DNA from: a virus
Reading direction: 5' to 3' (one strand)
IMG/VR virus record: IMGVR_UViG_3300025168_000277
Coordinates: 1 to 35,593 of that record
DNA length: 35,593 nt
Shown piece after piece: positions 8,158 to 26,043 of this stretch. The notes below the pieces were generated by a model, which saw nothing but the letters and a program-made list of their open reading frames with translations, was not told the origin of the DNA and ran no database searches. The stretch's first letter is position 1, and each line of letters starts with the position of its first letter. Position numbers and translations under genes: made by a program.

Positions 8158-8501
8158 TGGCTAGTATGGGGTCACCTAAGAATGTAAAATATGGTGGATG
8201 TAGATACACTTCACGATGGGTAAGACAAAGATATCGTAAAGATATCATACACAGATGGAAAAGAATGAAAGGGTGTAAGAAATGTGGTTATAACGAGAAT
8301 GGAGTAGCTCTTGATCTTGACCATATAGAACCCGGAAAGAAAGCTTTTGCAATAGGTAATGGTAGATCCATATCATCTAAAACATGGCTTGTTGTAAAAG
8401 AAGAACTATCAAAATGTCAAGTACTATGTAAGAACTGTCATGCAGTAAAGACATACGTTAACCAAGATACTTATAAAGAAAGGAGTAAGTATGCAAGATA
8501 A
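8157..8501 (+). CDS. HNH endonuclease, 114 aa
   Basis: The protein has the Cys4-type HNH fold: CKKC (40-43), LDLDHIEP with D55-H56, and CKNCHAVK (91-98). These residues bind zinc and the catalytic metal. The basic N terminus would contact DNA. The gene sits between polymerase and exonuclease, overlapping the polymerase stop and the exonuclease start. T7 also has an HNH gene (5.3) after its polymerase, so it is probably a selfish homing endonuclease that settled there; a role in DNA metabolism is possible. Confidence 0.92.
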   Translation: MASMGSPKNVKYGGCRYTSRWVRQRYRKDIIHRWKRMKGCKKCGYNENGVALDLDHIEPGKKAFAIGNGRSISSKTWLVVKEELSKCQVLCKNCHAVKTYVNQDTYKERSKYAR

Positions 8502-9303
8502 TAATGGCGTAATACTAGTAGATGCTGATTCAATATACTTTAAAGCAGCATGTGTAACTAAAACAAAACGATCTATAAAAAGAAATATAGACTCGTTAAT
8601 GGCTGAAATAGATGGTCAATGTTTTATGAACGAATTAAAAGTAGCTGTCAAAGGTCGTGGTAATTTTAGAAAAGATATATATAAATTATATAAATCTAAT
8701 AGACCTAAATTAGATAAAGATCTAAGAGAAGCCCTTAACTATGGATACACCCATATGGTTAAGAAATGGAAAGCAATACCTGCAAATGGTATGGAAGCAG
8801 ATGACTTAGTGTCTATATGGGCTTACGAAGCTCGTGAAAAAGAAAATCAATATGTAGTAGTAGGTATCGATAAAGATTTACTACAGATACCCGGAAATCA
8901 TTATAACTTCAATAAGAAAACACATAGATTTGTTAGTGATGATGAAGCGCACAAACTTCTTATGATACAATGCTTAACTGGTGATCGTACAGATAACATA
9001 CCGGGAATAAAAGGTATTGGTCCAAAGAAAGCTGAGAAGATACTAGAAGGTGTAAACAATGATGTTATGTGGAGACATGTTAAGAAAGCATGGCAAGAAC
9101 ATAATGCAGGTGACCCTAAAATATCTTTAAGATTACTATCAATGATAAAAACATGGGAAGAATATGAAGATATTAAATCATCTATTGAAGATAAAGCCCT
9201 TGAGTGCCAACAAAACTCTGGGAGCAAGAGGGAAGAACTCCTTCAAGAGCGCGGAGTACGTGAAGTACCAGAAGGAAATAGCGGAGTTACTGAAGGATGT
9301 TAA
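8491..9303 (+). CDS. 5'-3' exonuclease (FEN / T7 gp6-like), 270 aa
   Basis: Acidic metal ligands lie in ILVDADSIYF (residues 8-17), GMEADDLV and VVVGIDKDLLQIPG, and a helix-three-turn-helix DNA-binding element in TGDRTDNIPGIKGIGPKKAEKIL, marking a flap-endonuclease-type 5'-3' exonuclease that removes RNA primers and degrades host DNA. AAAGGAG lies upstream of ATG 8491, in the end of the HNH gene. The last 45 or so residues are low in family character and are read through the start of the next gene in another frame, a 140-base overlap. The gene may have lost an earlier stop codon, or an indel may be present. Confidence 0.92.
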   Translation: MQDNNGVILVDADSIYFKAACVTKTKRSIKRNIDSLMAEIDGQCFMNELKVAVKGRGNFRKDIYKLYKSNRPKLDKDLREALNYGYTHMVKKWKAIPANGMEADDLVSIWAYEAREKENQYVVVGIDKDLLQIPGNHYNFNKKTHRFVSDDEAHKLLMIQCLTGDRTDNIPGIKGIGPKKAEKILEGVNNDVMWRHVKKAWQEHNAGDPKISLRLLSMIKTWEEYEDIKSSIEDKALECQQNSGSKREELLQERGVREVPEGNSGVTEGC

Positions 9304-9532
9304 ATGGCCTTTCGGGGTCAACCAAGTAACATTCGAAGTCGAAGGAGGATTCTCTAATAGAGGAGCTGATCTTGACAATATAATTAAACCAATATTAGAT
9401 ACATATCAAAGGATATTTGAGGACTTCAATGATAACAGAGTATATAAAATCAAACTCACAAAACGAATCACCCCAAAAGGAGATGAGTACATCAGAGTCA
9501 GAATTTACGAAGAGCCAGAACAAGAAGAGTGA
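9164..9532 (+). CDS. RusA-like Holliday junction resolvase, 122 aa
   Basis: KIKPLSANK near the N terminus and SNRGADLDNIIKPILDTYQ (residues 64-82) with FNDNRVYKI are the RusA pattern: the two Asp in DLDN and the later Asp coordinate magnesium. RusA enzymes resolve four-way junctions and help process replication intermediates before packaging. GGGAAG precedes ATG 9164; the conserved core starts soon after, so a later start is unlikely (TTG 9185 at most). It overlaps the exonuclease gene by 140 bases in the +1 frame. Confidence 0.87.
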   Translation: MKILNHLLKIKPLSANKTLGARGKNSFKSAEYVKYQKEIAELLKDVKWPFGVNQVTFEVEGGFSNRGADLDNIIKPILDTYQRIFEDFNDNRVYKIKLTKRITPKGDEYIRVRIYEEPEQEE

Positions 9533-9605
9533 TGGTAAGAAACTTAAAAGAAAAATAAATAAATCAAACAATAGAAAGCTAAAGGCAGAAAGAGATTACT
9601 TATGA
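9483..9605 (+). CDS. Small lysine-rich protein, 40 aa
   Basis: The frame bridges the gap between the resolvase and the primase-helicase and its TGA overlaps the primase ATG (ATGA at 9602). The C-terminal half is strongly basic (KKLKRKINKSNNRKLKAERD), which would suit nucleic-acid binding. An AGGAG directly abuts ATG 9483, too close for optimal use; in-frame starts at 9417 and 9432 lie deeper in the resolvase gene. Not recognised; it may only serve to couple translation. Confidence 0.4.
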   Translation: MSTSESEFTKSQNKKSDGKKLKRKINKSNNRKLKAERDYL

Positions 9606-11218
9606 GCAGATACACGATGGGTCCATGTGAATTCTGTGGTTCGTCTGATGCATTTGCGTCTTACGAAGACGGAGTAGGTACATGTTTTAGTTGTAATAAA
9701 TCTAAGAAATTAACTGAGGAAAGGGATGAGCCAATCACCTATACAAGTAATGATAACATCACCAACATCTCTGCTTATTCTAGTTACGGTATATCTAGTC
9801 GTAACATATCTAAGGAAGTAGTAGATCACTATGGTGTTAAAATGTCAACAACTCCCGATGGAAAACCGGGGTCACACTACTATCCATATACTAAAAAGAA
9901 TGAGATAGTAGCATATAAAGAAAGAATATTACCAAAAGATTTCAGAATACATGGTAACTTTACAAATGTAGAGTTGTTTGGTCAAAATACATCTATTGGT
10001 AATAGAATGCTAGTAATAACTGAAGGTGAACTAGATGCAATGGCAGTATGTGAATCCTTCTATAGAAAATCTAAGAAGTTTTACCCATGCGTGTCTATAC
10101 CTTCTGCATCAGCAATTAAAATTGTACTTGAACAAAGAGATTGGATAAATAAATTTGATACTGTTGTCCTAATGTTTGATCAAGATGAAGCAGGAGAAAA
10201 GTGCACAACAGCAGTAGCTAAAATGATACCTGCAGGTAAAGTAAAGATTGCTAAACTACCTAAGAAAGATCCATGTGCTGTACTATCAGAGCTTGGATCA
10301 CAAACTTTAGAAAGATGTGTATGGGATGCACAACCTTGGTCACCTGCTGGAATTGTAGTAGGAGAACAAATATGGAAACAGTTTACTGATAGACAAAACA
10401 TAGAGTCTGTACCATACCCTGATTGCCTAGAAGGTCTTAATAGAAAGCTTAAAGGTATCAGACATGGTGAGATAACACTGTTCACTAGTGGTACTGGTAG
10501 TGGTAAAAGTACTGTAATTAAAGAAATTGTATTAGATCTACTACATAAAACAGACTATAAAGTAGGGTTAATATCCCTAGAAGAAAGCATTGGAGATACT
10601 GCAGAAAAGTTTATATCTATGGAACTACGTAAAAATATAATTGAAACAGTAGATCCAACAGATGATGCAACTAGATCCGCATTTAATTCTGTGTTTGGTA
10701 ATGAAAACCTAATACTACTAGATCATCAAGGATCTGTAGGTGACTCAACTCTAATCGAAAAGATAGAGTACATGGCATTAATGGGTTGTAAATACTTAGT
10801 GCTAGACCACATAACTATAGCTGTATCTGAAGGATCTGAGGGACTCTCAGGTAATGAAGCAGTAGATAAAATTATGTCTGACCTGTTAAAGATTGTTAAG
10901 AAACACAACATATGGTTAGGTCTTATCTCCCACCTACGTAAGTCACAAGGTGGTACTAAAAGTTTTGAAGAAGGAAAGCTTGCCTCCATTGATGACATCA
11001 AAGGTTCAGGTTCTATTAAACAAATATCATTTGATATCATTAGCTTTGCTAGAAACCTGTTAGCTGAATCTGATTCAGAACGTAACATAATAAAGTTCAG
11101 AGTATTAAAATCTAGATTCACTGGACTAACTGGTAGCGCAGGGTCAGCAATGTATAACCACAAAACCAGCCGATTAACTGCTACAGGGGGCTTTGACTTT
11201 GTAGCTACAGGAGATTAA
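9602..11218 (+). CDS. T7 gp4-like primase-helicase, 538 aa
   Basis: A single protein that primes lagging-strand synthesis and unwinds DNA. The zinc-binding site uses C9, C12, C28 and C31. The TOPRIM primase core has E141 (ITEGELDAM) and D193/D195 (MFDQDEAG). The RecA-type helicase has Walker A GTGSGKST (297-304, K302), Walker B near D402 (YLVLDH) and the H motif WLGLISHLRK. Length and domain order match T7 gp4A, so both activities should be intact. It ends two bases before the RNA polymerase start. Confidence 0.96.
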   Translation: MSRYTMGPCEFCGSSDAFASYEDGVGTCFSCNKSKKLTEERDEPITYTSNDNITNISAYSSYGISSRNISKEVVDHYGVKMSTTPDGKPGSHYYPYTKKNEIVAYKERILPKDFRIHGNFTNVELFGQNTSIGNRMLVITEGELDAMAVCESFYRKSKKFYPCVSIPSASAIKIVLEQRDWINKFDTVVLMFDQDEAGEKCTTAVAKMIPAGKVKIAKLPKKDPCAVLSELGSQTLERCVWDAQPWSPAGIVVGEQIWKQFTDRQNIESVPYPDCLEGLNRKLKGIRHGEITLFTSGTGSGKSTVIKEIVLDLLHKTDYKVGLISLEESIGDTAEKFISMELRKNIIETVDPTDDATRSAFNSVFGNENLILLDHQGSVGDSTLIEKIEYMALMGCKYLVLDHITIAVSEGSEGLSGNEAVDKIMSDLLKIVKKHNIWLGLISHLRKSQGGTKSFEEGKLASIDDIKGSGSIKQISFDIISFARNLLAESDSERNIIKFRVLKSRFTGLTGSAGSAMYNHKTSRLTATGGFDFVATGD

Positions 11219-11219
11219 C

Positions 11220-13529
11220 ATGCAGCCTATTTATGAGGTTAGAGACTACCTCATTGAGAAAGTGAGGACTGTCAATAGTAAGAATCCAAAAGCAAATACA
11301 GGCGCAGTAATACTGCAATACAACAAGGACTACGAAACAAATATGGAAGGCTTTGTAAAGAATGCTCTCCAAACTATACAAATATTGTTCACAACCAGTA
11401 GTAGTTCTAATCCTGTAGGAACAGCCAGCTTAACTAATGTATCATTCAAAATAGGAAGAGAAATTAGTAAAGAACTAGGAAGAGAATTAACTTGGCTTAA
11501 TCAAATTAGACTAGGTGACCTGTTCGTAGAAGCATTCTATCAATGTGGTTTTGCAGATATATATTATCCAAAAACTAGAAACACTAGTTATATTATATCT
11601 GCAACAGCTAGATGGGTAGAGCTGGCAGACATACCCGGTATGTTCTCTAGAATAAACCTACTGCACACTTCAATCACACCACCAAGAAACATTAATGGTA
11701 TGATGCAGAAGTCAGGAGCAGTATTTTTCCCTGTAATAAAAGGTAAAACTGCAAAAGATTTTCTAGAGTTAGACAAACCATATATACGGTCAATAAATAA
11801 ACTGCAAAACTCTGGATGGAGAATAAACAGAAGAGTACTAGATGTTATAGAGAAATACAAAGAAGTATTCTCTAGCTCTATACCATTTAAAGACAACGAT
11901 GCTAAAGAATTAAAACGTAGAAGTCAGGCATTAGAATGGAGTTTCATTATAGCTAAAGCTAATATATTAAAAGATGAAGATATATTCTATCAATATCTAG
12001 ACGCTGACTACAGAGGACGATTGTACTACAAAGAACCTTTCCTAAACTATCAAGGATCAGATATATCTCGTGGTATGTTAAAGTTCGCAAGAGCTAAACC
12101 TATGACACAAGAAGGTCTGTATTGGTTAGCAGTACATACAGCAACAAGTTACAATGCAAGCTTTAGTATAGATAAAATACCAGAGTGGTGTGAATCTGAT
12201 TATGAATCATACCTAAAAGAAGAAGGACTAGATGATATATCCGTAGATAAAATGACATTAGACGATAGAGTACGATGGGTTAATGAAAATATGGATGCAA
12301 TTGTTAACTTAGGTACAGATGGTGAGATTGATTCTGAAGCAGAAAAGATAGTAACTTTCTTAGCTTGCTGTATTGAATGGTCTGACTACACTAAAGCTGT
12401 AAAAGATAAAAGAATACATATGTCTAACCTTCCAATACCTATCGATGGGTCTAACAACGGGTGGCAACACTTAGGTGCTATATCTAAAGATACTCAAACA
12501 GGTGATCTTGTTGGTCTTATACCTAGAGAAATACAGAAAGACTTCTATGTACAAACTGCAAAAGAACTAATTAATCTAACAGATGATGAAAGGTTAATAA
12601 GCATACTAAACATGATGCCTATGAAAAGTATACGTAAAGGTATTACTAAACGTGGCAGCATGACTCGTGCCTACTCAGCAGGTGCTAAGAAGATCGCTGA
12701 GAATATGTTCTTTGATTGTAAAGCAGAAGATTATCATACAGAATATGGTATAACTCAGGACGATTGCAACAAGTTTGCTAAGGTATTAATAAAAGCAATC
12801 AATAATGTATGTCCGGGTCCATTACAGACTATGAGTTACCTTCAAGAGCTTGCTAAGTATGAACTTGGTACTTTCAAGAAGGTTGATGAAGATGGAAAGA
12901 TAGCAGGACCAGAGTATAAAGAAGCTGTAAAGAGAAGATCAGAATTGTTCAAAACAAAAGACATAACTGATGAAGAAATTGATGAGTTAAATGAACTTGT
13001 AAAGTTTACATCAAAATACAAATCAATTCTTGTATACGGCAATGGTGCTGATAGAGTTAAATGGACTACCCCATCTGGATTCAGTGTTGAATATACAAAA
13101 TTCAGAATGGAACGTAAGAAAGGTAGAGGTACTATCGCAGGGTTCAAGAAAAACAGTGGTGGTCATCAAGGGATAAACCACGTTGCTCAGACAGCAACTA
13201 TATATCCTGACATACAAGGGTTCTTGTGTGGTATATCACCAAATGTAATACACTCACTCGATGCAAGTCACATGGCTCTAGTAATAGATCAGTGGCATGG
13301 AGAGTTTGGTGCAGTGCATGATAGCTTCTCCACCCATGCATGTGACGTTGAACACCTCATTGGTATAACCAAGAGAGCGTTCATAGACATGTATGATGTA
13401 GATAACTTCTACAACTGGCTCGAACAAGAGCTAATATCTGAAGACCATGAGGGTCTAGAGGTACAACAACCACAGTTAGGTACACTAGATGTCAATGACA
13501 TCCAAGAGTCCGACTACTTCTTCGCATAG
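11220..13529 (+). CDS. T7-like single-subunit RNA polymerase, 769 aa
   Basis: The polymerase shows the family motifs in order: GR element with R267 (DYRGRLYY), motif A D409 (IDGSNNGWQH), motif B K477 to Y485 (TKRGSMTRAYS), HSLDASH, and motif C D701 (VHDSF), ending SDYFFA, very like the T7 C terminus. Motif B has Ser486 where T7 has Gly. Y485 is the residue equivalent to T7 Y639 and is retained. It is shorter than T7 RNAP (883 aa), so the N-terminal promoter-binding region is reduced. It lies at the end of the replication block and probably transcribes later genes. Confidence 0.96.
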   Translation: MQPIYEVRDYLIEKVRTVNSKNPKANTGAVILQYNKDYETNMEGFVKNALQTIQILFTTSSSSNPVGTASLTNVSFKIGREISKELGRELTWLNQIRLGDLFVEAFYQCGFADIYYPKTRNTSYIISATARWVELADIPGMFSRINLLHTSITPPRNINGMMQKSGAVFFPVIKGKTAKDFLELDKPYIRSINKLQNSGWRINRRVLDVIEKYKEVFSSSIPFKDNDAKELKRRSQALEWSFIIAKANILKDEDIFYQYLDADYRGRLYYKEPFLNYQGSDISRGMLKFARAKPMTQEGLYWLAVHTATSYNASFSIDKIPEWCESDYESYLKEEGLDDISVDKMTLDDRVRWVNENMDAIVNLGTDGEIDSEAEKIVTFLACCIEWSDYTKAVKDKRIHMSNLPIPIDGSNNGWQHLGAISKDTQTGDLVGLIPREIQKDFYVQTAKELINLTDDERLISILNMMPMKSIRKGITKRGSMTRAYSAGAKKIAENMFFDCKAEDYHTEYGITQDDCNKFAKVLIKAINNVCPGPLQTMSYLQELAKYELGTFKKVDEDGKIAGPEYKEAVKRRSELFKTKDITDEEIDELNELVKFTSKYKSILVYGNGADRVKWTTPSGFSVEYTKFRMERKKGRGTIAGFKKNSGGHQGINHVAQTATIYPDIQGFLCGISPNVIHSLDASHMALVIDQWHGEFGAVHDSFSTHACDVEHLIGITKRAFIDMYDVDNFYNWLEQELISEDHEGLEVQQPQLGTLDVNDIQESDYFFA

Positions 13530-13537
13530 GAGGTGTT

Positions 13538-13777
13538 ATGAGTAGAGAATATAATATTTTAGCACTAAGAGGTGCTGATATAAAGGATCAAGAGTATGTA
13601 GAAATGTATGATTTAGACCCTAAGTTAGCAAACACACCAGATATAAACTACGCAATGTTAGATCTGGTTTACAAAGAAAACTTGAAAGAAGGAAGCACAG
13701 AAGCTAGAGCTAATGAGCTACGATCAAGTGCTGAAAGAGACATGAAGATATTGCTTGCCAAGAAAGGCTGGCTCTAA
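13538..13777 (+). CDS. Hypothetical protein downstream of RNA polymerase, 79 aa
   Basis: AGGAGGT gives a strong binding site before ATG 13538, eight bases after the polymerase stop. The product is acidic and helical (LDPKLANTPDINYAMLDLVYKENL, then a helix rich in Ala/Arg/Glu). No domain recognised. As the last gene of the plus arm it ends just before the shared terminator. A regulator of the polymerase is conceivable from position alone. Confidence 0.65.
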   Translation: MSREYNILALRGADIKDQEYVEMYDLDPKLANTPDINYAMLDLVYKENLKEGSTEARANELRSSAERDMKILLAKKGWL

Positions 13778-13788
13778 TAAATAAAAAA

Positions 13789-13836
13789 CCCCCACTAGGA
13801 ATCCTTAATTGGAAACTTAGTGGGGGTATTTTTTTT
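13789..13836. terminator. Bidirectional terminator between converging arms
   Basis: CCCCCACTAGG (13789-13799) pairs with CTTAGTGGGGG (13816-13826), about ten base pairs. A T-run follows on the plus side (13829-13836) and an A-run precedes the stem (13783-13788), giving a U-run on the minus transcript. It ends transcription of both the plus replication arm and the minus virion arm. Confidence 0.88.
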
Positions 13837-16800
13837 ATCCTGAATAATGATTAGCAATATTTTCCTTGCTACCATCTTGATTTATTAAAGTATAACCTGA
13901 TTTCTTCATAAGATCTAATGCATTCATCTTTTGAACATGAGTTTTTGTAGCCCAATTTCTAAGTCTAGAAAAGTTTTTACCATATAAGAAACTAAAGTAA
14001 ATAGGTATTAACTCTTGTAAAAATCCATAATTTAAATTGTTCACAGTACTAATATAATCTGGAGAGTTAACATCAAAATTATATTTAGCGTTACCTCCAA
14101 TAGATGACGAAATCAAATGCCTTATAGTTGATAAAGACTGAGTTTGTACATTGTTAGATTGCTCTAACCAATTTTTATTATGAGACATAAAACTTTTAAT
14201 ATTTATATTAAACTGAGATTCATGTCTAAACTTTGCACGAGAACCTAACCTTTTATCATACTCTCTACTGCCCTCAGGTACACCTGAATTATAACTAAAC
14301 AAATCTACAAAGAATCTTTTATCTTCATCAGTTAGACGTTCTTTAGGGTTTTGTTTGTTTAACCATTTCATATATGAAGTATGTTCTTTTTGAAGAGAAT
14401 TTAAAAGTTGTTGAAATATATTATAATTCCTTATAACATCTGTAATAGCTCTATTAACTTCCCTTAACACTGTATCAAAAGTTCCTATGTCAAGATAAAT
14501 AGCATCATAAACCATTTGCATAAATGGGTTACCACCACTGTTATGGCCTATCATTGAGAATGTTTTACCAGTAAGAATATGATTGAAGACTGCTGCATCA
14601 ATTGAATGTACAACTTTAGAAATTATTTTACTATGTAGATCACCACCTGACATAGAGATATCTACCCCTGAAACTGGATCAATATCTTCTTTATATGCTG
14701 TCATAGATCTTTTAGTTTCCCATTGACCAACAGTTAAAGATATTTTTTCAAATTTATTAGGGTCTTCATCACCTTTATCTTTCAATAATTTACTTTGTCT
14801 TGTCATTGAATATGAATTAGATGTTGAATCATCCCATCCACGAGATTCCCATAAACCTACAGTCAAAGGTGTATTATCAGGACTCATAAAGATTAACTCA
14901 GGTGTGTTCATAAGTTGATAAGATAAACTAATAGTTCTTAAAATAGATCTATATTCTCTTGCATCATCCCCTTGTAAAACTTCATAACTTTCCATGTACT
15001 TTTTATGTACCATATGTGCTACAGCATTTAAGTTATTATTTTTCTTTAAATTATCATAAGAAGTAACAAAAGGATGTGGGTTCCCAATTGTTTGGCTAGA
15101 TTTTAAATTTCGATATAAAATATCAATAGTATTTTTAACATCTGCTTTATAAGAATCACGCTCCTTGCCAAAAGCTTCAGTCATTACAACATGCTTTGCC
15201 ATAGTATTATTCTTACCTTCACCTCTAGTTTTAAAAACCTCAACAGATATATTATGAATATCAAGATAAGGCAATTCACTATTAGGTGATCCATCACTAT
15301 CATTAAATAAGTTTTTAGGATAATCCCAGTTAATCACTGGTTCACTTTCAAGAGTACTTAAAAGAATACTAATTAGCTGATCTCTTAAATCTCCATTATC
15401 AAGGATAGATATACCTTGAGATCTTAACATGCCTGTTTTATATAAGTTATCTATATTACCTATCAAGGCGGCAATAATAAAAGCACCACTTGTTTTACCA
15501 TCTATGTTTGACATAGTTGTTGAGTAAAAAGGAGTGTCAGTATTTTCCCTTTTCCATTTCCTATATTTAGAAAACTCTGATAAGTCCTTTAAAAAAGCAA
15601 TGGATTCTATACCTTTTTCTTTTATAGCAGAAATTAACTTAGCATCCAATTCATTATTAGGATCTAACGTAGGTGAGTTCATTCCAGTAAACACTGGATT
15701 TTTTACTAACTCACTAACATGACCTTGACCTGCTACAGTTTTTTCAGGTGGTGGGAATATACCATCCTTCATACCGATAAGATCTTCTCCAAAATTATCT
15801 ACTAAATCAAACACTTCAATAACTCTATCACCCATCTCTTCAAAAAGATTACTATTTATTTCTAAATTACGATCTCTTTCTTTAAATAATAAGTCATCTG
15901 TTTTAAGACCTGTCTTAATTACTTTACCATCTGATATTGTATAATACTCTGCAGCTTTAATAGCAAAATTTAATGCAAACATCTGCCTAAGAAGAGCTTC
16001 AGATCTATTACCTTTACGAATAGGATAGACAACAGGATTAGCTAATGCACCCCTTACTATTTTTAAAGCTTGAGGATTTAAATGAGTTACATCTAAATCT
16101 ATTCTACCAGAAAACCCTTGTATAGCTGTATTAAAATAAAACAAAAGACCTTGCGCTCTAGCAAGAGACCTTAGTACCCTTGCAACTTGTAAGACTGCTG
16201 CATCATATTCTTGTTCTACTGTTGGAATGCGAGAGTTTTTAGGTACACCAGACCTTCTATTAAAATACTCAGTTACTTGTTGGCTTTCAATGGATGCAGT
16301 TATTTCATTAATTTTTGCTTGACCTATTCCAAGAGCATCTAACTTCCATCTTTTTGACTCATCACTCTTTTCAAACACAGTTTTATAACCTTCACCATCT
16401 TGTCTTGATTTTAAAAAAGGTATAAGTAATTGAAATAAAATATATAAATTTTTATTATTTATTTTAAAAGAAATACTAGAAAGATTAAACCTAGCCTCTT
16501 CAGCTTTTTTAGATAAGCGTCCACCAATAGCACCACGAACGGAATTTAAATTATCACCCTTTAAAGGTGGTGTTAGTAAAATATCTTTAAACTCTTTACG
16601 CAATAAAAACCCACGAGCCATTCTAGATTCAGGATTATTAAATACCTTATGACCTAACTCTGTCAATGCAAACTTAATTGGAGATGATATCTCACCACCC
16701 TTACCCTTAACAGAAGGTATTCTTGTAAGTAAAGGGTACTTAATACCACCATTATTATCAGCTCTACCTTCCTGACCATGAACAGAATATAATAACTCTT

Positions 16801-17896
16801 GAGCATAATCACCTAGTGTTGTAGCTTCTTGAGAATTAGAGTCAGCCTCCTCATCTCTACCCTGTGATAACCAGAATTGTTTTATTGCTTCACCACCTAT
16901 CATACCATTGCTTCTATTCTTTGCAATTAATGTTTTATCTTTATAATCAACTTGCTGTTGAACAGTTAAGTTATCCTTATTAGCTAAAGCATCAGCATAC
17001 ATAGACTTAGCTATTGCATCTTCAGCTGCTACAAGTAAAAACGTCACAAGATCAGGATGTAAATACATCTTTTGTTTTCTAGCCTCTGCACCTTGTCTTT
17101 CAATTTCAACACCTTCTACTTTAACAGGTCTTAAAGTTAAAGGTGCATCAGTATTTTCTCTTACAATACCACCAACTGATTCAGCAGCAGCAAGATAACT
17201 ACCGGGTCTTACAGATTTATGTCTAGCAAATGCTAACCGTTTAACAGGATCACTAGCAATCTGTATCATAGGTTTACCATTTAAATTTTCTTGTATCCAC
17301 TCAGGATGTTCAGCAAGAAACGATTCAGATGTAGATTCATAAGGTATTGTAAGACCTGCACCTTCGTTTCTAGAGTATTCTATTCCATCTTGTATTCTGG
17401 AATCTAAACCAATCAAAGCATCACCATTAACTAATGCCTTAATTGGATTAAGATATTCATCAGCAGCATTTGCTTCATCTTGTTCTGGGTTCCAAGTGCC
17501 AGATTTTATAGCCTCACGTCTACCAGTCACTGTAGTTGCAGTAGGATCTAAATCTACCCCAGAACTCTCTGATATCTCAGTAGCATCAGCTTCAACAGGA
17601 CCATAAGGTGATCCCTCTCTAAAAGGATCTTCACCAAAATCAAAAGGAACTGAAGAAGCTATATCATATAAACTTCGATTTTCTTTTTCAGCTGCAAGGT
17701 CAGACTCCCTTTGAATATCCACAGATGTAGGTGAGTTTAGCTCATCTGTTTCATCCACTAAATACTCTTCTACAGTATCTGCTACAGCCTCTTTAGCTTT
17801 AGATCGATTTTTTAAATCTTGTAATAAATCTGGATGAAGTGTATTACCAAGAGCTGTTTCATTATCCACTACCCCACCAACTGATGTTTTAGCCAT
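13835..17896 (-). CDS. Putative virion-packaged single-subunit RNA polymerase, 1353 aa
   Basis: Visible motifs in family order: GFSGRIDLDVTHLNPQ with R598 (T7 R425 region), motif A IDGKTSG with D799 (T7 D537), motif B NTMAKHVVMTEAFG with K901 and F909 (T7 K631 and Y639), VVHSIDA near 1095-1101 (T7 HSQDGSH), and motif C VYDAIYLD with D1131 (T7 D812). Spacing between motifs is longer than in T7, as in the N4 virion polymerase. The first 550 residues or so match nothing I know and could hold a packaging or injection domain. It is the last gene of the virion operon, four bases after the 1501-aa ejection protein, so packaging and ejection with DNA is likely. F909 (codon TTT, checked) replaces the sugar-discriminating Tyr. 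The motif match is direct; packaging is inference. Confidence 0.72.
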   Translation of the reverse strand: MAKTSVGGVVDNETALGNTLHPDLLQDLKNRSKAKEAVADTVEEYLVDETDELNSPTSVDIQRESDLAAEKENRSLYDIASSVPFDFGEDPFREGSPYGPVEADATEISESSGVDLDPTATTVTGRREAIKSGTWNPEQDEANAADEYLNPIKALVNGDALIGLDSRIQDGIEYSRNEGAGLTIPYESTSESFLAEHPEWIQENLNGKPMIQIASDPVKRLAFARHKSVRPGSYLAAAESVGGIVRENTDAPLTLRPVKVEGVEIERQGAEARKQKMYLHPDLVTFLLVAAEDAIAKSMYADALANKDNLTVQQQVDYKDKTLIAKNRSNGMIGGEAIKQFWLSQGRDEEADSNSQEATTLGDYAQELLYSVHGQEGRADNNGGIKYPLLTRIPSVKGKGGEISSPIKFALTELGHKVFNNPESRMARGFLLRKEFKDILLTPPLKGDNLNSVRGAIGGRLSKKAEEARFNLSSISFKINNKNLYILFQLLIPFLKSRQDGEGYKTVFEKSDESKRWKLDALGIGQAKINEITASIESQQVTEYFNRRSGVPKNSRIPTVEQEYDAAVLQVARVLRSLARAQGLLFYFNTAIQGFSGRIDLDVTHLNPQALKIVRGALANPVVYPIRKGNRSEALLRQMFALNFAIKAAEYYTISDGKVIKTGLKTDDLLFKERDRNLEINSNLFEEMGDRVIEVFDLVDNFGEDLIGMKDGIFPPPEKTVAGQGHVSELVKNPVFTGMNSPTLDPNNELDAKLISAIKEKGIESIAFLKDLSEFSKYRKWKRENTDTPFYSTTMSNIDGKTSGAFIIAALIGNIDNLYKTGMLRSQGISILDNGDLRDQLISILLSTLESEPVINWDYPKNLFNDSDGSPNSELPYLDIHNISVEVFKTRGEGKNNTMAKHVVMTEAFGKERDSYKADVKNTIDILYRNLKSSQTIGNPHPFVTSYDNLKKNNNLNAVAHMVHKKYMESYEVLQGDDAREYRSILRTISLSYQLMNTPELIFMSPDNTPLTVGLWESRGWDDSTSNSYSMTRQSKLLKDKGDEDPNKFEKISLTVGQWETKRSMTAYKEDIDPVSGVDISMSGGDLHSKIISKVVHSIDAAVFNHILTGKTFSMIGHNSGGNPFMQMVYDAIYLDIGTFDTVLREVNRAITDVIRNYNIFQQLLNSLQKEHTSYMKWLNKQNPKERLTDEDKRFFVDLFSYNSGVPEGSREYDKRLGSRAKFRHESQFNINIKSFMSHNKNWLEQSNNVQTQSLSTIRHLISSSIGGNAKYNFDVNSPDYISTVNNLNYGFLQELIPIYFSFLYGKNFSRLRNWATKTHVQKMNALDLMKKSGYTLINQDGSKENIANHYSG

Positions 17897-17899
17897 ATC

Positions 17900-20800
17900 T
17901 TACTCCTTGAAATTTAGGTTAGTTGTTAAGTCACCTATCTCGTTTGTTAATCTATTAATAGATCCAATGTACGGTGTTGCTTTAGAAAGTTTCTTAAGAC
18001 CACTACCAACATCACCAGTTATTAAATTTTCTCCTGCACCTATTAATCTTTCAAGGTTACCAAGTCCGGGAGATTCTCTAGATACTGCTCCAAATAAATA
18101 TTCAATCATAGTATCACCTTTATTACCCTGAGGGTACAAAGGCGCAAACTGATCTAGTATTCTTTCGTATGTACCTAATAATCCAGAAGACCTAACACCA
18201 CGTTGAAGGTAACCTGACGTATCTAAGTAAGGATTACTACGACTACCTTCAAGTGGATTAACCACACCCATGAAGTTGTCTTCATCTTCATACTTCAACA
18301 TGTCCTTAATAGCTTGAGAAGCAAATCCCAACATGATCATAGTTGCCATCATAGAGTATGCACTATACTTCATAGTTGGTGAACCACGTTTAAGGTACTC
18401 ACCATATAACCTTGGCAAGTGACTAGCTGTAAACGTAGCCATAAACCCTTGAAACTGTGTAAACAATGCGTACCTAGGATCTTGATAGATTAAAGGTCTA
18501 TTCATAGCCATAGGTAATGCCACTGCTTCATTAACAAAATTAAATGTAGCTTCTCTTAGCTGACTGTTTCTATATTCCATTTCTTTTTCTGTTAATATAT
18601 CTAGACCACCTTTCTGCTCCATGTCTCCAATTGAATTATTAGTTTCAATAATTTTCTTTCTTGCAGATTCCTTTTCTTCTAAGGTAGTAGTATCACTAAG
18701 GAGTATTTTATACTCTGCTATATTAGCATGTTTCATATTTAAATCAAATCTTTTATAAAAATCTACAAAAGTTTCAACATCTAATCCTAAGTTTCTTAAT
18801 GACTCTTTAGCTTGAGTTACTTCACGAGTTACCTTATCAACTTCTTCTCTATTTAATGTAAGGGTTCCGGGTTCTTCATCAATATCTCTTTTTAAATCCA
18901 TTGAATTAACAAAATTAGAGATTGATTCTCTACCTAACTCTGTATTTATATCAATAAAAGGATCAACATCAAAAACATAACCGTAATCAACAATCAGTTT
19001 TAATTTTTCACTAATAAAGTCAGCTGCAATAGAAGCACGAACAGCACGAGTGTAGTTTGTCCACCCTTGTAAACCATTCCATTTAAAATATGATTGCATA
19101 ATATTTCTTTGCCAAGCATTAATTTCTGTAGCACCAACTGTAGTCGATGCACCTAAGCCACTTTTAATATAACCCAGATCACGTATAATCCTTTGACCTC
19201 TTGCTAACTTAGCAGATGTATCAAAGTTTTTACCACCGGGTATATCATTAGATATTTGTTTCATACCAGACTTAATCATTGCAGCAAACTCTTGACCTTG
19301 AGTTTTTAAAAGACCATTAACATCTTCAGGTTTTAAATGCCTACCAGTTAAAGCAAGCTCAACAAAAGAAGATATAGTAGATAAAGATAAGCCAGCTAAA
19401 GCTGTAAACATTAAGAACGATCTTTGTATTTGTTCAAGTTTCTTACCTGCCTCAGTAGTTGCACGTTTAAAATTTCCAGACTCAGCTAACAGTGCGTTAG
19501 ATAACTCAAAAGCTAATTTATCAATTAAAATTTGAGCTTTCTCTTCACCATAAACCTTAGCTAAATTTTCTTGAGACTGATTAAGTAATTCATTTACAAT
19601 CCTACCATCTTTACCTATAAACATAGAGTGTGATAAGTGTCTTGCAGCTGTAGCAGAGTAGCGTGTTAAATTAGTAAACACATCTTGCTCTAAGAACTCT
19701 TTAAACTCTGGTCTTTCGGAAAGTTTTAAAGTTCTTTTCTTAGTAAAGCTAGGGTTAAGATCACCCTTTACCATTGAAAAAGCTTCATCAAGATCAACTG
19801 TTCCAGTGGTAATTATCTTATCAATCACAGCATCAATCTCAGTTTCTGAATAATTTATATCTTTTCTAATACTCATTAATAATTTTTTAAATAACTTTTT
19901 CTTTTTCCTAACACTCCTTACACTTAAAGTTTTAAATACACTACCGTATTGTGGTGTATACTCTAATGAACCTCTCTCTCTACCTTGTGTATCTAATCTA
20001 TTACTCTTAAGGTTTTGTTCATTAATTTTTTTAAACACAGTGTCAGTAGCTTTATTAATCTGATTAATTAATTCTATATATGTTTCTCTGTTCTTTAAAT
20101 CCAATGGTATTAAAGTTTCATCAAACACAACACTAGTAGTACCATCAGGATTCTTTACAGTTTTTTTAGCATTATCCCATACATCATTAAACTTTTCAGA
20201 TGCAGCCTTCTGTTTCTTCCTAGTTGAATTACCTTCAATTACTGTATTATAAAAAGTAGACTGATCCATAACATCACTCATAATTTCAGATTGTAAATGT
20301 ACCTTTATAGACTCCCATGCTGCACCACTAAAAGATTTTTGATTAGCGTTACCAAAGATATCTTTCAACATTCTTCCGGGAACTTCTGCAACTGCTAAAA
20401 ACTCTTTTGTAAAACTAGACGTAGATATACTCTGGAAAAATTTAGGAAACATTTTTAAACTATCAATAACTCTATTTTGAAAAGCCATTTTACCAAACCT
20501 TTGCATATGTCTTTGAGACTTATCATTAAGGTCATCTGTATTAATTTTATTCTTTGGGTTTTGTAAGTTTCCTTTTTCTATATTTAACTTAGCTTTTGCT
20601 TTAGCATCTGCATATAACTTTGCTTTAGCTGTCTCAGATCTACCATCCCACTCACCTTTAGCTATACTTTTTTTCTTTGCAATACTAAAAAGTCTAAAAG
20701 CTTCATCATCAATTGCTTTATTATTTACTTGAGCTAAGTCATCTGCTTCGGATGCATTGTCTTGATTCGTTGGCATACCTTTTAAATTATTCTTTTTAAT

Positions 20801-22405
20801 ATATTCATCAGCCCATGCACTAGCATCTGATATCTCAGAACCATCTCCTTCTTGCGCGCCATAGGCAATGTTAGCCCATCCTACATGATTTGATGCCTGA
20901 AAAGGCACACTAAATCCAAGACCTAAAGCTCCACCAGTAATCGCAGCTGTCATCATTCTTTTATTTAATTCATCAAAGTCAAAGACTTTATCAGATCCAG
21001 CAGTGGCTGCAAGATAGTTAGTAGCTTCTTGACCAAGCTCTGTTAATCCCTCACCAGCTGATGCAGCTCCTGATTTTGAAGCTATAGATTTAAAAAGTTC
21101 TTTCCCTCTTATCTGTTCTTTAGCTACCTTAGCAGCATCACCTGCAAAACCTACAAGTTCTCGCTTAGTTGCAGTAGCTATCTGAGCCTGTGCAACTTCC
21201 CTAGGGACACCCCTTGCAATCAATTCTAATAGAGCAGTATCTAAAAGTTTCTTAGGCATAACACCTTTACTAAATACAGCTGCTAAACCTAATCTATCTA
21301 AGGTTGCTTGAACAACACCAGACATCATAGCAATTTTTGGATCTCTATTACCAGACATCTCATTATAAGTTTGACCTGCATACACAGCAGAGGTAGCAGA
21401 TATACCAAGAGGTAATGCTAAAGTAGCACCTATCAAAGGAGTGGCTACATTAGCAACAGCTAAAGTACCTAAAGCTAAAGCCATGTAAGGTACAGACATA
21501 GCTGCGTTATTAGCAAGCCATATCATAGTATCATATGCACCATCAATATCTCTGTAGTCTGTTAACCTTGTACCATACTCACCTATTTTGGCACGATACC
21601 TTTCAACACCTTCTTCCCCTATATCACTCAATCTCTCTGCGTCTAGTAGATCACCAGATGCTTCTAAGAAACCATACATACCTTCCATGACTCCCATCCA
21701 ACCATGTTCCCAAGAGTCGGTAATAGGGTTTAAAGATTCATTGGTTACAGTACGATCATTCTTTCTTGTTTGAGTAAGAGTTTGGGAGTAATAGTTCCCT
21801 TGTTCTAATTGGTTTGCAGCTGCTAATTCCTTTTCATCAAATGCAACTTTCTTTATTCCTTGTGAGAACTCTCCCTCTTTTATTCTAGCAGAAAGCATTT
21901 GATTCCTAGCTAAATCATAGCTTGTGGTCTCAGCACTTCCCATACTATAGAACCTTTCTAAAGCCCCTACACTATGTTTAGCTACATCTAAATCTGAAGA
22001 GTATGCAGAAGTACCTAATATTCCCTCTCTTAAAATCTTATCTTTAAAACTTTGACCACTACTATTTACTAAGTCAGCCAATGTTCTTCCATAGAAATCT
22101 TTTTTAATATTTCCCTTACCATCAGTAAGAGGTCTAATATTAGTAAAGCCATTATCATTTGCTAGCTTTGACATAATAGCTGTAGCTGCTGAACCTCCAG
22201 CAGTTCCTTCTTTAAAAGTACCATCATCAAGTATTTTTGAAACTTCGGGAGTATCAAACCCAACTAGCCTATACCTAACACCTCCTTTGTCAACAGTATC
22301 TCCGTCAACAAAGTAAGGCATGGTATTAGGAGATTGAATGTAATCATTCGGGTCACCAAGCTGTGAGCTTTCAAACCTCTCATTTACTGCATCTATCAAA
22401 CTCAT
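17900..22405 (-). CDS. Giant ejection protein with N-terminal SNase-type nuclease, 1501 aa
   Basis: Residues about 28-150 form a staphylococcal-nuclease-like domain: FVDGDTV (D34, D36), RLVGFDTPE (R46, D51, T52, E54) and DFYGRTLADL (R107) supply every catalytic residue of that family. A long hydrophobic stretch (about 296-345), further hydrophobic segments near the middle and C terminus (LMFTALAGLSLSTISSF, MMATMIMLGFASQAI) and a Gly-rich tail ending near LITGDVGSGLKKLSK suit a membrane-inserting internal virion protein of the T7 gp16 kind. Such proteins form the DNA-ejection channel. It sits between the murein-hydrolase and polymerase genes. An added nuclease could act on host DNA or RNA after entry; it must be restrained in the virion. 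The domain call is strong, the ejection role inferred. Confidence 0.78.
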   Translation of the reverse strand: MSLIDAVNERFESSQLGDPNDYIQSPNTMPYFVDGDTVDKGGVRYRLVGFDTPEVSKILDDGTFKEGTAGGSAATAIMSKLANDNGFTNIRPLTDGKGNIKKDFYGRTLADLVNSSGQSFKDKILREGILGTSAYSSDLDVAKHSVGALERFYSMGSAETTSYDLARNQMLSARIKEGEFSQGIKKVAFDEKELAAANQLEQGNYYSQTLTQTRKNDRTVTNESLNPITDSWEHGWMGVMEGMYGFLEASGDLLDAERLSDIGEEGVERYRAKIGEYGTRLTDYRDIDGAYDTMIWLANNAAMSVPYMALALGTLAVANVATPLIGATLALPLGISATSAVYAGQTYNEMSGNRDPKIAMMSGVVQATLDRLGLAAVFSKGVMPKKLLDTALLELIARGVPREVAQAQIATATKRELVGFAGDAAKVAKEQIRGKELFKSIASKSGAASAGEGLTELGQEATNYLAATAGSDKVFDFDELNKRMMTAAITGGALGLGFSVPFQASNHVGWANIAYGAQEGDGSEISDASAWADEYIKKNNLKGMPTNQDNASEADDLAQVNNKAIDDEAFRLFSIAKKKSIAKGEWDGRSETAKAKLYADAKAKAKLNIEKGNLQNPKNKINTDDLNDKSQRHMQRFGKMAFQNRVIDSLKMFPKFFQSISTSSFTKEFLAVAEVPGRMLKDIFGNANQKSFSGAAWESIKVHLQSEIMSDVMDQSTFYNTVIEGNSTRKKQKAASEKFNDVWDNAKKTVKNPDGTTSVVFDETLIPLDLKNRETYIELINQINKATDTVFKKINEQNLKSNRLDTQGRERGSLEYTPQYGSVFKTLSVRSVRKKKKLFKKLLMSIRKDINYSETEIDAVIDKIITTGTVDLDEAFSMVKGDLNPSFTKKRTLKLSERPEFKEFLEQDVFTNLTRYSATAARHLSHSMFIGKDGRIVNELLNQSQENLAKVYGEEKAQILIDKLAFELSNALLAESGNFKRATTEAGKKLEQIQRSFLMFTALAGLSLSTISSFVELALTGRHLKPEDVNGLLKTQGQEFAAMIKSGMKQISNDIPGGKNFDTSAKLARGQRIIRDLGYIKSGLGASTTVGATEINAWQRNIMQSYFKWNGLQGWTNYTRAVRASIAADFISEKLKLIVDYGYVFDVDPFIDINTELGRESISNFVNSMDLKRDIDEEPGTLTLNREEVDKVTREVTQAKESLRNLGLDVETFVDFYKRFDLNMKHANIAEYKILLSDTTTLEEKESARKKIIETNNSIGDMEQKGGLDILTEKEMEYRNSQLREATFNFVNEAVALPMAMNRPLIYQDPRYALFTQFQGFMATFTASHLPRLYGEYLKRGSPTMKYSAYSMMATMIMLGFASQAIKDMLKYEDEDNFMGVVNPLEGSRSNPYLDTSGYLQRGVRSSGLLGTYERILDQFAPLYPQGNKGDTMIEYLFGAVSRESPGLGNLERLIGAGENLITGDVGSGLKKLSKATPYIGSINRLTNEIGDLTTNLNFKE

Positions 22406-22428
22406 TTGTCTCTCCTAATTTAAGTCTA

Positions 22429-25400
22429 TTAATTAAACCTTTCACTGTACATAAGGTACTCTAAGTATTTTAAGAACTCACTTTTCCCTGCGTGAGCTTT
22501 ACCTTTACTATCTCTCCAGTCTTCTATGTTCTTAGCTATTGGAGCATTATTACCCTTATCAGAACCTTGGTAATCTCTGTTAGGCCCTGCTCCCTCAACA
22601 AAGTTTTCTCTCCAAGTATTCCAATCTGGAAACATTACCTCATCTAAAGGTTTATTTTTATTAATCTCTCTTATTTTTTCAGACACAAGTGCAAGAAGAC
22701 CAGATGAAAATACTCCCAAATCTTTATCATGAAGATTTGGAAACAGATAAGTAGTTACTCCATCCCTAGTTTTTTGCATCTTTTGAAGTTTTAAAAATGT
22801 ATTTGTAATATCACTAGGCTTATCATACTGAGCTGAAGAAGCATGAGTATATGTAGTAGCATGTCGTTTAGATTTTTCAGCTGGCTTAGTCATAAACAAA
22901 GACTCGTCTTGACCTATTTTAATTTTAATCCAAGCAGCATTCATAAATGAACTATCTACATCCATACCTGCAATGCCTCTAATTGTAGACGCTTTACCTG
23001 ACCCACCTGTTTTTATATGATGTTTGTATGCTTCTGCCATAGCTTGTTCATATATTTCTAGAACCACAGCCGAAGGAAGGTTGTACCTCTGACCAAAGTG
23101 AGCTAAATTTATTGCTTCTGCTGTAGGTGCTACTTTAGAAAAGGTGTTAAAGGTCTTATCACTATCTTTACCAGATACCTGTTTAGTATCATCATACGTG
23201 TACGTGTCTAAATAATCATCTACCGAACCTTTATACGTAGTAGTAGCTGATGCTGAAAAGTCTAGATAATCTGTTGATTGAAAGTCTCTAGCTATAACAG
23301 AATCATCAGTCCAAAGTGGATCCATAGGATTAATCTTCACTTTATCATTCTTCTTTGTCTTTGGATTATAAATAGAAGCCATATATCCAGACTGTTTTTT
23401 ATCACCTGTACCAGTAGACCAATATACAGCTGTATATTTACCAACCTTATTACCATTTTTATCTAGTCGGTAGTAAACCTTAGTCTTTGATGCATCATAA
23501 TTTGTATTATTTAACTCACTAAATCTTACTAAGTCATCTGTATCTTGACTCCTATTATATAACTCAAGACTGGGTTTAGTAAATACATTATAACTTGCTA
23601 ATTTTTTAACATGGTTATTCCACATATCTAACTTATTAACGTAAGCAACTTGGGTCATGTAGTCTTCACCAGCAGCTTTAATAGCTTGGTTACCTGTAGC
23701 ACCAGTTGCTCTGTATGCTGCGTAAATCATAGCTGCTCTTGCTAAAGACTTACCATCAAACACATCATCAAATGCAGCTTTAATAACACCTTCAGCTGCA
23801 TCTAAAATTCCTTTCCACTTAGTAGGTTTTTCAGCTTTATCTATTTCCATCTGTTGTAAAGCAGCTTTAGTTGATCCCCCAAAAGGATCATTACCAAAAA
23901 TCTTTGCTCTCTCTGGTTCAGATCCCGGTTCTTGTGGGTTATCATAAGCAATTAATTTATTTCTTACATCTGCTTCAGAGCCATGTATTAAAGAAGGTTG
24001 AGCTTTATTAATCCTTTCCATACTAGATGTTTTAAATGCATCAGATACATCAGCAATCCCTTTAACTTTTTCAATATATGCATCTATACTTTTTACTTGA
24101 GGACTATCTTCTGCAAGACCTTGATCAATATACTCTTGTCTTTTATCTAACGCTTTATCAATAACTACTTTATTCTTTTCTATTCCAATTATTGCGTTTC
24201 TAATATTTTTACTTTCAAATATTTGAAGTCTTGCCTTAGAGTCTTCTACTTTTTTATCTAGCTTTTCACGATCAGACGTACTAAGATCGGTATTATATTG
24301 ACTAATTAAATCAGCAAGTGTTTTCTCTTCTGATCTTAAATAATCTAAAGAAGATCTTATTGGAGTTTCTTTGCTTATAAGAGAACCACCGGGTCCGGGT
24401 ATTCCTTCTGAACTAATCGGAGGTTTAAAATCTACTGAGTCTTCAGAAATATATGGGTTTTGAATATCTTTTAATAGTTCAGGTGTATTCTCAGGAACTA
24501 TATCTGTAAATAAATCGCTACTATAAATAGGGTTGTTTTTTAGCAAGTTACCACCACCCAACCAAGGAGCAACTTTGCGTTCTTTAGTAAGAAAATTCCA
24601 CCATTTATTAGAGGACTTTTCTTCTTGAGCGTCTATTGGTATTGGGCCTTCTGGTGATGAAGTTGTACCTTCAGTAACTAATGTGTTCTGTCCTGTATTA
24701 GGAACAGCACCACCGTAAGGACTATCTACAAAATTCTTACCATCCCAGTTAGAAAACTGTTGCTGCCGCGTTTGATTAAGACCGGGCATTATTCTTCTTT
24801 CATTAGTCTCTATATTTTCCTGAATAGGTGTATCATTTTTACCAGTGTAAAACTCCCATAAATCTTTTTTCTCTGGAGTCTCTTCAACTTCAGGCGAGGG
24901 GATACCATAAGGGAATCCATGAGAATCTAATCTTGGTGGGTAAGAATGTAGCTGCCTACCATAAGGATCACCGGGTCCACCTAAGACGTTATTACGAGCC
25001 TGAGAAGAACCATACAACATAGCTTCATCAGTCATCTGATCTCTACCTAGTTGATTAACTTTATGCTTTGTAAAACCACCTGACTTATTACCCTTTAGTA
25101 ATCCTTGTATTAATGTTTGTATAGAGCTAGCTCCAGTATTTGCGTACATAGGGGTATCCTCCATAGCTGGTACGTTTAAAAATGAGTTCTCTACAGAATC
25201 TCTTGTTGATTTCATAATATTATTTATATGATCTTCAGCGTTAGATGTTGGTACATCTAAAGTTCTAACCTTTGGTATAAGAGACTTGTAGCCTACGATA
25301 GGGTTTTGATAACCTAATACTTTATCATCACTAGAGAAAACATGATTACCAATTTTTCTTCTATTATGTGTTTTACTCCACCATTCCATAGGATAACCTT

Positions 25401-26043
25401 CACCTTCTAGCTTATCACTACCTTCAAATCCATAAAAGTTATCATCATCAGGTCTTAAAAAATAGTGAGCACCATTAGTAGGATCTACAATATCACCTTT
25501 TATCATACCTTCAAGAATAGCTTTAGATCTTAAGTATTCTTCTGACTCTTCTATCTTATCTTTATACCAATGATAAGTTGGATTATTTGATCTTGGATTA
25601 GCTGATGAAAATTGGTATCTAATTTCTCCTTTTTTGTTTTTTTTATTTTTATTAATTATATCTTTTATACTATTACCACCCCATTGCTTTTGATCTGCTT
25701 TCTGTCTATTTAAAACAGTATACATAACACCAGCTCTACCTTCGTCATCTTCTCCAACAGACTCTCCTAAAGACATTCTAATTAATAAGTCTTTATCATC
25801 TTCAGATAAAACATACTTACCATCATTAGCAGTAAGGTATGGTATATTACCACCTGCATTATACTTTGGTACATCACCTTTAACCATTTTATTTTCTGCA
25901 GCTCTTTGCTCTAAACCTGCATCATTCATAGCTTGTAGTTGTGGTCCAAACATCTGAGAAGCTTCTTTATTTATTACCCATTCACCCGGAGTTAGCATCG
26001 CAGGGATGCTATCTCTGTTCGTAGGATCTGTAAGGTCTCTCAT
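22429..26043 (-). CDS. Internal virion protein with SleB-type murein hydrolase domain, 1204 aa
   Basis: Residues 84-240 match the SleB cell-wall hydrolase domain: IRMSLGESVGEDDEGRAGVMY with E94, QFSSANPR, DPTNGAHYFLRPDD, and a closing IGNHVFSS. SleB enzymes are lytic transglycosylases; in a virion protein the domain would open the cell wall during DNA entry. The N terminus has DSIPAMLTPGEWVINKEA (11-28), a motif usual in tail tape-measure proteins. A charged coiled-coil section lies near 560-690 and an Ala-rich amphipathic section near 750-800. It is followed at 24 bases by the SNase-fusion gene. No holin or free endolysin is visible, so it may also aid exit, but entry is more likely. Confidence 0.82.
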   Translation of the reverse strand: MRDLTDPTNRDSIPAMLTPGEWVINKEASQMFGPQLQAMNDAGLEQRAAENKMVKGDVPKYNAGGNIPYLTANDGKYVLSEDDKDLLIRMSLGESVGEDDEGRAGVMYTVLNRQKADQKQWGGNSIKDIINKNKKNKKGEIRYQFSSANPRSNNPTYHWYKDKIEESEEYLRSKAILEGMIKGDIVDPTNGAHYFLRPDDDNFYGFEGSDKLEGEGYPMEWWSKTHNRRKIGNHVFSSDDKVLGYQNPIVGYKSLIPKVRTLDVPTSNAEDHINNIMKSTRDSVENSFLNVPAMEDTPMYANTGASSIQTLIQGLLKGNKSGGFTKHKVNQLGRDQMTDEAMLYGSSQARNNVLGGPGDPYGRQLHSYPPRLDSHGFPYGIPSPEVEETPEKKDLWEFYTGKNDTPIQENIETNERRIMPGLNQTRQQQFSNWDGKNFVDSPYGGAVPNTGQNTLVTEGTTSSPEGPIPIDAQEEKSSNKWWNFLTKERKVAPWLGGGNLLKNNPIYSSDLFTDIVPENTPELLKDIQNPYISEDSVDFKPPISSEGIPGPGGSLISKETPIRSSLDYLRSEEKTLADLISQYNTDLSTSDREKLDKKVEDSKARLQIFESKNIRNAIIGIEKNKVVIDKALDKRQEYIDQGLAEDSPQVKSIDAYIEKVKGIADVSDAFKTSSMERINKAQPSLIHGSEADVRNKLIAYDNPQEPGSEPERAKIFGNDPFGGSTKAALQQMEIDKAEKPTKWKGILDAAEGVIKAAFDDVFDGKSLARAAMIYAAYRATGATGNQAIKAAGEDYMTQVAYVNKLDMWNNHVKKLASYNVFTKPSLELYNRSQDTDDLVRFSELNNTNYDASKTKVYYRLDKNGNKVGKYTAVYWSTGTGDKKQSGYMASIYNPKTKKNDKVKINPMDPLWTDDSVIARDFQSTDYLDFSASATTTYKGSVDDYLDTYTYDDTKQVSGKDSDKTFNTFSKVAPTAEAINLAHFGQRYNLPSAVVLEIYEQAMAEAYKHHIKTGGSGKASTIRGIAGMDVDSSFMNAAWIKIKIGQDESLFMTKPAEKSKRHATTYTHASSAQYDKPSDITNTFLKLQKMQKTRDGVTTYLFPNLHDKDLGVFSSGLLALVSEKIREINKNKPLDEVMFPDWNTWRENFVEGAGPNRDYQGSDKGNNAPIAKNIEDWRDSKGKAHAGKSEFLKYLEYLMYSERFN

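What the first reader, a model, noticed from the sequence alone, without database searches (positions are those of the whole stretch)
15169..15172. Natural Tyr-to-Phe change at the sugar-discrimination position of the packaged RNAP
In the well-aligned motif B the residue matching T7 Y639 is F909 (codon TTT on the minus strand at 15172-15170). In T7 RNAP, Y639F strongly weakens discrimination between rNTPs and dNTPs. The other polymerase in this genome keeps Tyr (Y485, codon TAC). The packaged enzyme may accept dNTPs, so it could make mixed transcripts or DNA primers, or it may discriminate by another residue.
Basis: partly seen in the sequence, partly recalled or inferred. Interest (0 to 1): 0.74.

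Follow-up and report, generated by a model that had tools for sequence, protein, structure and literature searches.

The report
Phage virion RNA polymerase with Phe gate
A marine phage's likely packaged RNA polymerase really does carry phenylalanine where almost all its relatives carry the tyrosine that helps tell RNA from DNA building blocks, but the same natural swap is already known in Pseudomonas phages, so it is probably a working RNA polymerase that is less choosy in the test tube, not a new kind of enzyme.

Summary
The 1353-aa ORF at 13835-17896(-) has F909 (TTT, 15172-15170) in K901-x7-F909-G910, the motif B position of T7 Y639 and N4 Y678; the second polymerase keeps Y485. Profile comparison (hhalign 99.3%, E 3e-20, against N4-like virion polymerases), a predicted T7/N4 fold (Z 27.5 and 22.1), the absence of cysteine, and a place beside structural genes make it an N4-type virion RNA polymerase about one third the size of N4's. 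That it is packaged is inferred. Phe is not fixed: all 45 readable homologs found through a neighbouring gene have Tyr, and a Phe-specific scan of viral contigs found only this phage population (two assemblies). Phe is not unprecedented either: LIT1/LUZ7-type Pseudomonas phages and Littlefix carry it, and a 2010 paper noted a 'Y678F' substitution in such phages. This lineage also departs from its family at 11 other near-invariant sites, has a private 6-residue insert before the O-helix, and a reciprocal F-to-Y at 916. Best reading: a functional RNA polymerase on a fast-diverging branch, with predicted relaxed ribose selection; it keeps the H784 and G542 equivalents, so transcripts are still RNA. 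Nothing supports DNA-primer synthesis.

The parts
13835..17896 (-). N4-type virion RNA polymerase homolog, 1353 aa, no cysteine (P0001)
15170..15172 (-). F909 codon TTT, the position of T7 Y639 / N4 Y678
15206..15223 (-). private 6-residue insert GEGKNN (892-897) between R891 (T7 R627 position) and the O-helix; low confidence in the model
15224..15226 (-). R891, equivalent of T7 R627 (displaced by the insert)
15194..15196 (-). K901, equivalent of T7 K631; invariant in the family
15149..15151 (-). Y916; Phe, Leu or Met in all other members (T7 F646 position); reciprocal F-to-Y change
15500..15502 (-). D799, motif A catalytic Asp (T7 D537)
15485..15487 (-). G804, equivalent of T7 G542, retained
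   Evidence: role from PMC11617373
16103..16105 (-). R598 of the T/DxxGR motif
14606..14608 (-). H1097, equivalent of T7 H784 (VHSxD), retained here; Gln in most of the family
14504..14506 (-). D1131, motif C catalytic Asp (T7 D812)
17900..22405 (-). 1501-aa protein without cysteine; weak SNase-like N-terminus; PHROG virion structural protein; likely ejected protein
22429..26043 (-). 1204-aa protein without cysteine; cell wall hydrolase domain PF07486; likely ejected protein
11220..13529 (+). second, T7-like RNA polymerase, 769 aa, with Y485 (codon 12672-12674)

Best explanation
The gene encodes a compact N4-type single-subunit virion RNA polymerase of a marine podovirus related to Roseobacter phage CRP-7. 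It is most likely packed in the capsid, ejected with the DNA through the cell envelope together with its two cysteine-free neighbours, and transcribes the first phage genes (inferred from N4). [quoted passage not shown] By analogy with T7 Y639F and the natural LIT1-type enzymes, it should polymerise rNTPs nearly normally while selecting less strongly against dNTPs; because rNTPs outnumber dNTPs in cells and H1097 and G804 remain, the products should be RNA with at most about a percent or two of dNMP (my estimate). The change is private to this lineage and is one of 12 departures at near-invariant positions, so the most economical reading is tolerated, near-neutral or compensated drift on a fast-diverging branch rather than a new function. 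Shown: sequence, alignment, distribution. Inferred: packaging, activity, relaxed selectivity.
For: Codon and residue verified in two assemblies. Tyr in 45/45 other readable homologs found through the neighbouring RNAP gene, and a Phe-motif scan of viral contigs returned no other family member. Family relation: hhalign to N4-like virion polymerases 98.3%, E 2e-14, 578 columns, and 99.3%, E 3e-20, 714 columns with more members; PHROG 'virion RNA polymerase' hit E 0.0012; AF2 model pTM 0.75 matching T7 RNAP Z 27.5 and N4 mini-vRNAP Z 22.1. No cysteine in 1353 aa and in the two neighbours, as in N4 vRNAP, against 9 in the early polymerase and 12 in T7; cysteine-free virion polymerases noted in PMC3715699. 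Catalytic residues R598, D799, K901, G910, D1131 kept. Natural Phe at the same site in LIT1, vB_PaeP_4034, KPP21, PJNP053, Littlefix, and the LIT1/LUZ7 particle contains its virion polymerase (PMC3715699). 12 of 47 near-invariant columns deviate here against 0-3 in every other full-length member, though L004 has a nearly as long branch (1.59 vs 1.79) and deviates at only 2. T7 Y639F numbers: PMC9836923.
Against: No activity, packaging or substrate data exist. Besides Y909F, the 6-residue insert displaces R891, so triphosphate binding or activity could be altered in ways the T7 mutant does not model. The reciprocal F916Y might partly compensate, making selectivity normal. With only identical sequences in this lineage, selection on the gene cannot be measured.
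Confidence: 0.7

Rival explanations
1. Compensated discriminator: the lineage moved its sugar check. H1097 (T7 H784 position), G804 and possibly the reciprocal Y916 restore normal rNTP selection, so Phe has no effect on substrate choice.
For: H1097 and G804 retained; Y916 is the only Tyr at a site that is Phe, Leu or Met in all other members; H784 and G542 help discrimination in T7 (PMC11617373).
Against: H784 and G542 are present in T7 too, and Y639F still loses most selectivity (PMC9836923). Y916 lies seven residues away, at the T7 F646 position, with no evidence that it reaches the sugar. The Phe lineage LIT1 has no Tyr there (motif FGSNTKTA).
Confidence: 0.15
2. Decaying or repurposed polymerase: the catalytic domain is losing function and the protein stays as an ejected structural or internal protein.
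For: 12 of 47 near-invariant sites changed; insert at the O-helix start; longest end branch in the tree.
Against: ORF intact over 1353 codons; all catalytic Asp, Lys and Arg residues and motif glycines kept; confident polymerase core in the model.
Confidence: 0.1
3. Adaptive relaxed sugar selection: the enzyme uses dNTPs in vivo, making mixed transcripts or DNA-containing primers for phage replication.
For: Y639F relaxes selectivity in T7 (PMC9836923); Phe maintained for a long time in LIT1/Littlefix-type phages (about 51% identity apart).
Against: Phe absent from all other relatives of this phage; no genomic feature points to such a role; rNTP excess in cells (general knowledge).
Confidence: 0.05

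Closest known systems
Virion RNA polymerases of LIT1/LUZ7/KPP21 (Migulavirinae) and Littlefix
   Same: N4-type virion polymerase, no cysteine in the part read, Phe at N4 Y678 (MMFGSN), motifs A and C kept; the Y678F substitution already noted in PMC3715699
   Different: About 3400 aa; motif R...K spacing normal with no insert; no Tyr seven residues later; only distant sequence relation
N4 gp50 virion RNA polymerase (mini-vRNAP, PDB 3c46, 2po4)
   Same: Fold, motifs, cysteine-free, convergent position at the edge of the late genes next to ejection proteins
   Different: 3500 aa, Tyr678; host phage has a two-subunit middle polymerase (PMC3715699) rather than a single T7-like one
CRP-7-type marine podovirus virion polymerase homologs (L003-L082 and others)
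   Same: Same gene order, 1150-1480 aa, 0-1 cysteine, same motifs
   Different: All have Tyr; no 6-residue insert; Gln rather than His at the T7 H784 position in most
T7 RNA polymerase Y639F (engineered)
   Same: Same residue change at the O-helix tip
   Different: Laboratory mutant; promoter and N-terminal domain differ; whether the kinetics carry over is untested

Membership tests
Single-subunit (T7-type) RNA polymerase | T/DxxGR, motif A Asp, motif B R...K-x7-Y/F-G, motif C Asp | tested here: met
   R598, D799, K901-x7-F909-G910, D1131 aligned with T7 and N4
Single-subunit (T7-type) RNA polymerase | Right-hand polymerase fold of T7 RNAP | tested here: met
   T7 RNAP Z 27.5, 546 residues aligned, rmsd 5.1
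N4-type virion RNA polymerase | Profile similarity to Schitoviridae gp50 polymerases | tested here: met
   hhalign 98.3% and 99.3%, E 2e-14 and 3e-20
N4-type virion RNA polymerase | No cysteine | tested here: met
   0 of 1353; N4 0 of 3500
N4-type virion RNA polymerase | Gene beside ejection-protein genes at the edge of the late cluster | tested here: met
   Next to two cysteine-free virion-type proteins, convergent with the early genes, like N4 gp50-52 (PMC12633501)
N4-type virion RNA polymerase | Giant size of about 3400-3500 aa | tested here: not met
   1353 aa; the whole marine family is 1150-1480 aa, so it is a compact relative, not a Schitoviridae gp50
N4-type virion RNA polymerase | Presence in the virion | not testable with these tools
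   Needs mass spectrometry of particles
N4-type virion RNA polymerase | Hairpin promoters in the early region | tested here: inconclusive
   No hairpin with a stem of 7 bp or more (3 or more G/C) and a 3-nt loop in the window, but published stems are 4-5 nt in LIT1/LUZ7 (PMC3715699) and the early end of the genome may be missing
Schitoviridae (as phage) | N4-like core genome | tested here: not met
   Early region matches Roseobacter phage CRP-7 with a single-chain T7-like polymerase

The most novel reading that the evidence does not exclude
A natural virion RNA polymerase whose active site has been remodelled (Y909F, F916Y, O-helix insert, changes beside motif A) so that it uses dNTPs in vivo, for example to lay down mixed or DNA-containing primers during genome entry.
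Probability: 0.04. Interest if true: 0.8.

Novelty: new member of a known kind. Interest (0 to 1): 0.36.

Why it matters
It gives an apparently independent natural case of the Tyr-to-Phe change that was engineered into T7 polymerase to make modified RNA, and suggests that virion polymerases tolerate it. It also brings to light a compact, cysteine-free virion polymerase family in CRP-7-type marine phages that is unannotated in the records examined, which makes natural tolerance of relaxed sugar selection directly testable with a 1353-aa enzyme.

Tried and rejected
tblastn of the protein against 50,697 phage records found nothing, and PDB phmmer found nothing, so relatives had to be reached through the neighbouring polymerase gene. 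Pfam gives no hit for the protein. Single-sequence hhalign against N4 or T7 is not significant; only profile against profile is. A first Phe pattern specific to this motif found only this population plus one contig (L090) that gave no motif match on translation and no hit to the family profile; the broader Phe pattern gave 12 other contigs, none of which matched the family profile; in three the motif could be read and lay in proteins without similarity to the polymerase. The scan covers only K...MT.[AG]FG.E contexts. The Tyr-pattern homologs are selected for Tyr and are not counted as evidence for its conservation. Sequencing error was rejected (two assemblies). An alternative Tyr at the site was considered: Y916 is the nearest, seven residues on, aligned with T7 F646, so it is not the discriminator position. 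CRP-7 gp33 as a homolog is supported only by gene position, lack of cysteine and weak profile scores.

Full report
Observation. The minus-strand ORF 13835-17896 (1353 aa) has Phe at 909, codon TTT at 15172-15170, in MAKHVVMTEAFGKERD; the 769-aa polymerase at 11220-13529 has Tyr485, codon TAC. Another contig, IMGVR_UViG_3300001450_000488, matches the window over 17,232 bp with three base differences and two Ns, none in this gene. The Phe is therefore real.

What the protein is. Pfam finds nothing in it, and PHROGs give only a weak hit to 'virion RNA polymerase' over motif C. There is no match in the phage records. The neighbouring polymerase led to 80 related contigs and to Roseobacter phage CRP-7; about 50 of these contigs encode a homolog in the same convergent position, mostly at 22-29% identity. 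The family profile aligns with N4-like virion polymerases at 98.3% (E 2e-14, 578 columns), and at 99.3% (E 3e-20, 714 columns) with a larger set. An AlphaFold2 model of residues 285-1353 (pTM 0.75, most of the core at pLDDT 80-93) matches T7 RNAP (Z 27.5) and N4 mini-vRNAP (Z 22.1). The protein has no cysteine, nor do the two genes beside it (1501 aa; 1204 aa with a cell wall hydrolase domain), while the early polymerase has 9; N4 gp50 has none in 3500 aa. Lack of cysteine in virion polymerases was linked to passage through the tail and periplasm in PMC3715699, and N4 gp50 is one of three ejection proteins (PMC12633501). I infer a packaged, ejected polymerase about a third of the size of N4's.

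Is Phe conserved? No. In the unbiased set (found through a different gene), 45 of 45 other readable homologs have Tyr; K901 is also invariant, as is D799 wherever it is covered. The combined 64-member set has 63 Tyr and one Phe (part of that set was selected for Tyr).

Is Phe unprecedented? No. Reading 23 N4-like virion polymerases, Phe stands at N4 Y678 in LIT1, vB_PaeP_4034, KPP21, PJNP053, TEMp-D2 and Littlefix; the others have Tyr. The legend of supplementary figure S2 in PMC3715699 already names a Y678F substitution among these N4-like phages, guessing that it affects dNTP discrimination. The LIT1/LUZ7 particle contains its virion polymerase (same paper), so a Phe enzyme is compatible with a working phage. 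The window's Phe belongs to a separate family whose other members have Tyr, so it most likely arose independently.

What else is odd. Among 47 near-invariant columns this protein departs at 12 (K366Q, R483N, T490L, L644F, L685F, L692V, N795M, A806F, Y909F, G1008N, F1296L, L1326A), the other 35 full-length members at 0-3. It has a private insert GEGKNN between R891 (T7 R627) and the O-helix, which the model leaves disordered. Position 916, Phe in nearly all members of the first set and never Tyr in any, is Tyr here, so Phe and Tyr are swapped. It sits on the longest end branch of the tree (quick tree). So Y909F is one of many unusual changes, and a neutral or co-evolved history is at least as likely as a specific adaptation.

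Mechanism. In T7 the Tyr639 hydroxyl senses the 2'-OH through a metal ion; Y639F lowers rATP/dATP selectivity from about 120-140 to 5-7-fold (PMC9836923). H784 and G542 contribute (PMC11617373); their equivalents H1097 and G804 are present. With cellular rNTPs in roughly 10-50-fold excess (general knowledge), a 5-7-fold preference would give around 0.3-2% dNMP (my estimate). The products should remain RNA.

Mosaic context. The early genes are mostly 68-89% identical to those of L003, L007, L009 and L042, yet the virion polymerase is only 24-29% identical and its neighbour 39-55%. The late side has been exchanged or has evolved far faster, which may explain why this polymerase looks so divergent.

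Verdict. Phe is a private, apparently independent recurrence of a known natural substitution. The larger gain is the recognition of a compact, cysteine-free virion polymerase family in CRP-7-type marine phages; the CRP-7 paper reports only one RNA polymerase in the passages searched (PMC6918029), and gp33 is annotated as hypothetical.

Noticed in passing
13835-17896 compared with 6325-13777: Early genes are mostly 68-89% identical to several relatives while the virion polymerase is 24-29% identical: an abrupt change at the early/late boundary.
   Followed up: partly
17900-26043: Two further large proteins without cysteine (1501 and 1204 aa), one with a cell wall hydrolase domain, beside the polymerase; likely a three-protein ejection set.
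   Followed up: partly
L083:17859-21566 (Roseobacter phage CRP-7 gp33, 'hypothetical protein'): Same position, 1235 aa, no cysteine, HDAL motif-C-like sequence and YGK: probably an unannotated virion polymerase; sequence support weak.
   Followed up: partly
L120-L194, e.g. L143, L165, L171, L191: A second, larger clade of marine cysteine-free virion polymerase homologs with motif B FLKKSPMTMGYGQE and R-K spacing longer by one residue.
   Followed up: partly
15149-15151: Y916 replaces a residue that is Phe, Leu or Met in all other members, a Phe/Tyr swap with F909.
   Followed up: partly
14606-14608: The T7 H784 position is His in this clade and Gln in most of the family, so sugar-recognition residues vary in this family.
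   Followed up: no
44-117: tRNA-Trp (CCA) gene at the left end of the window.
   Followed up: no
993-1616: Gene product 88 family protein (PF17338).
   Followed up: no
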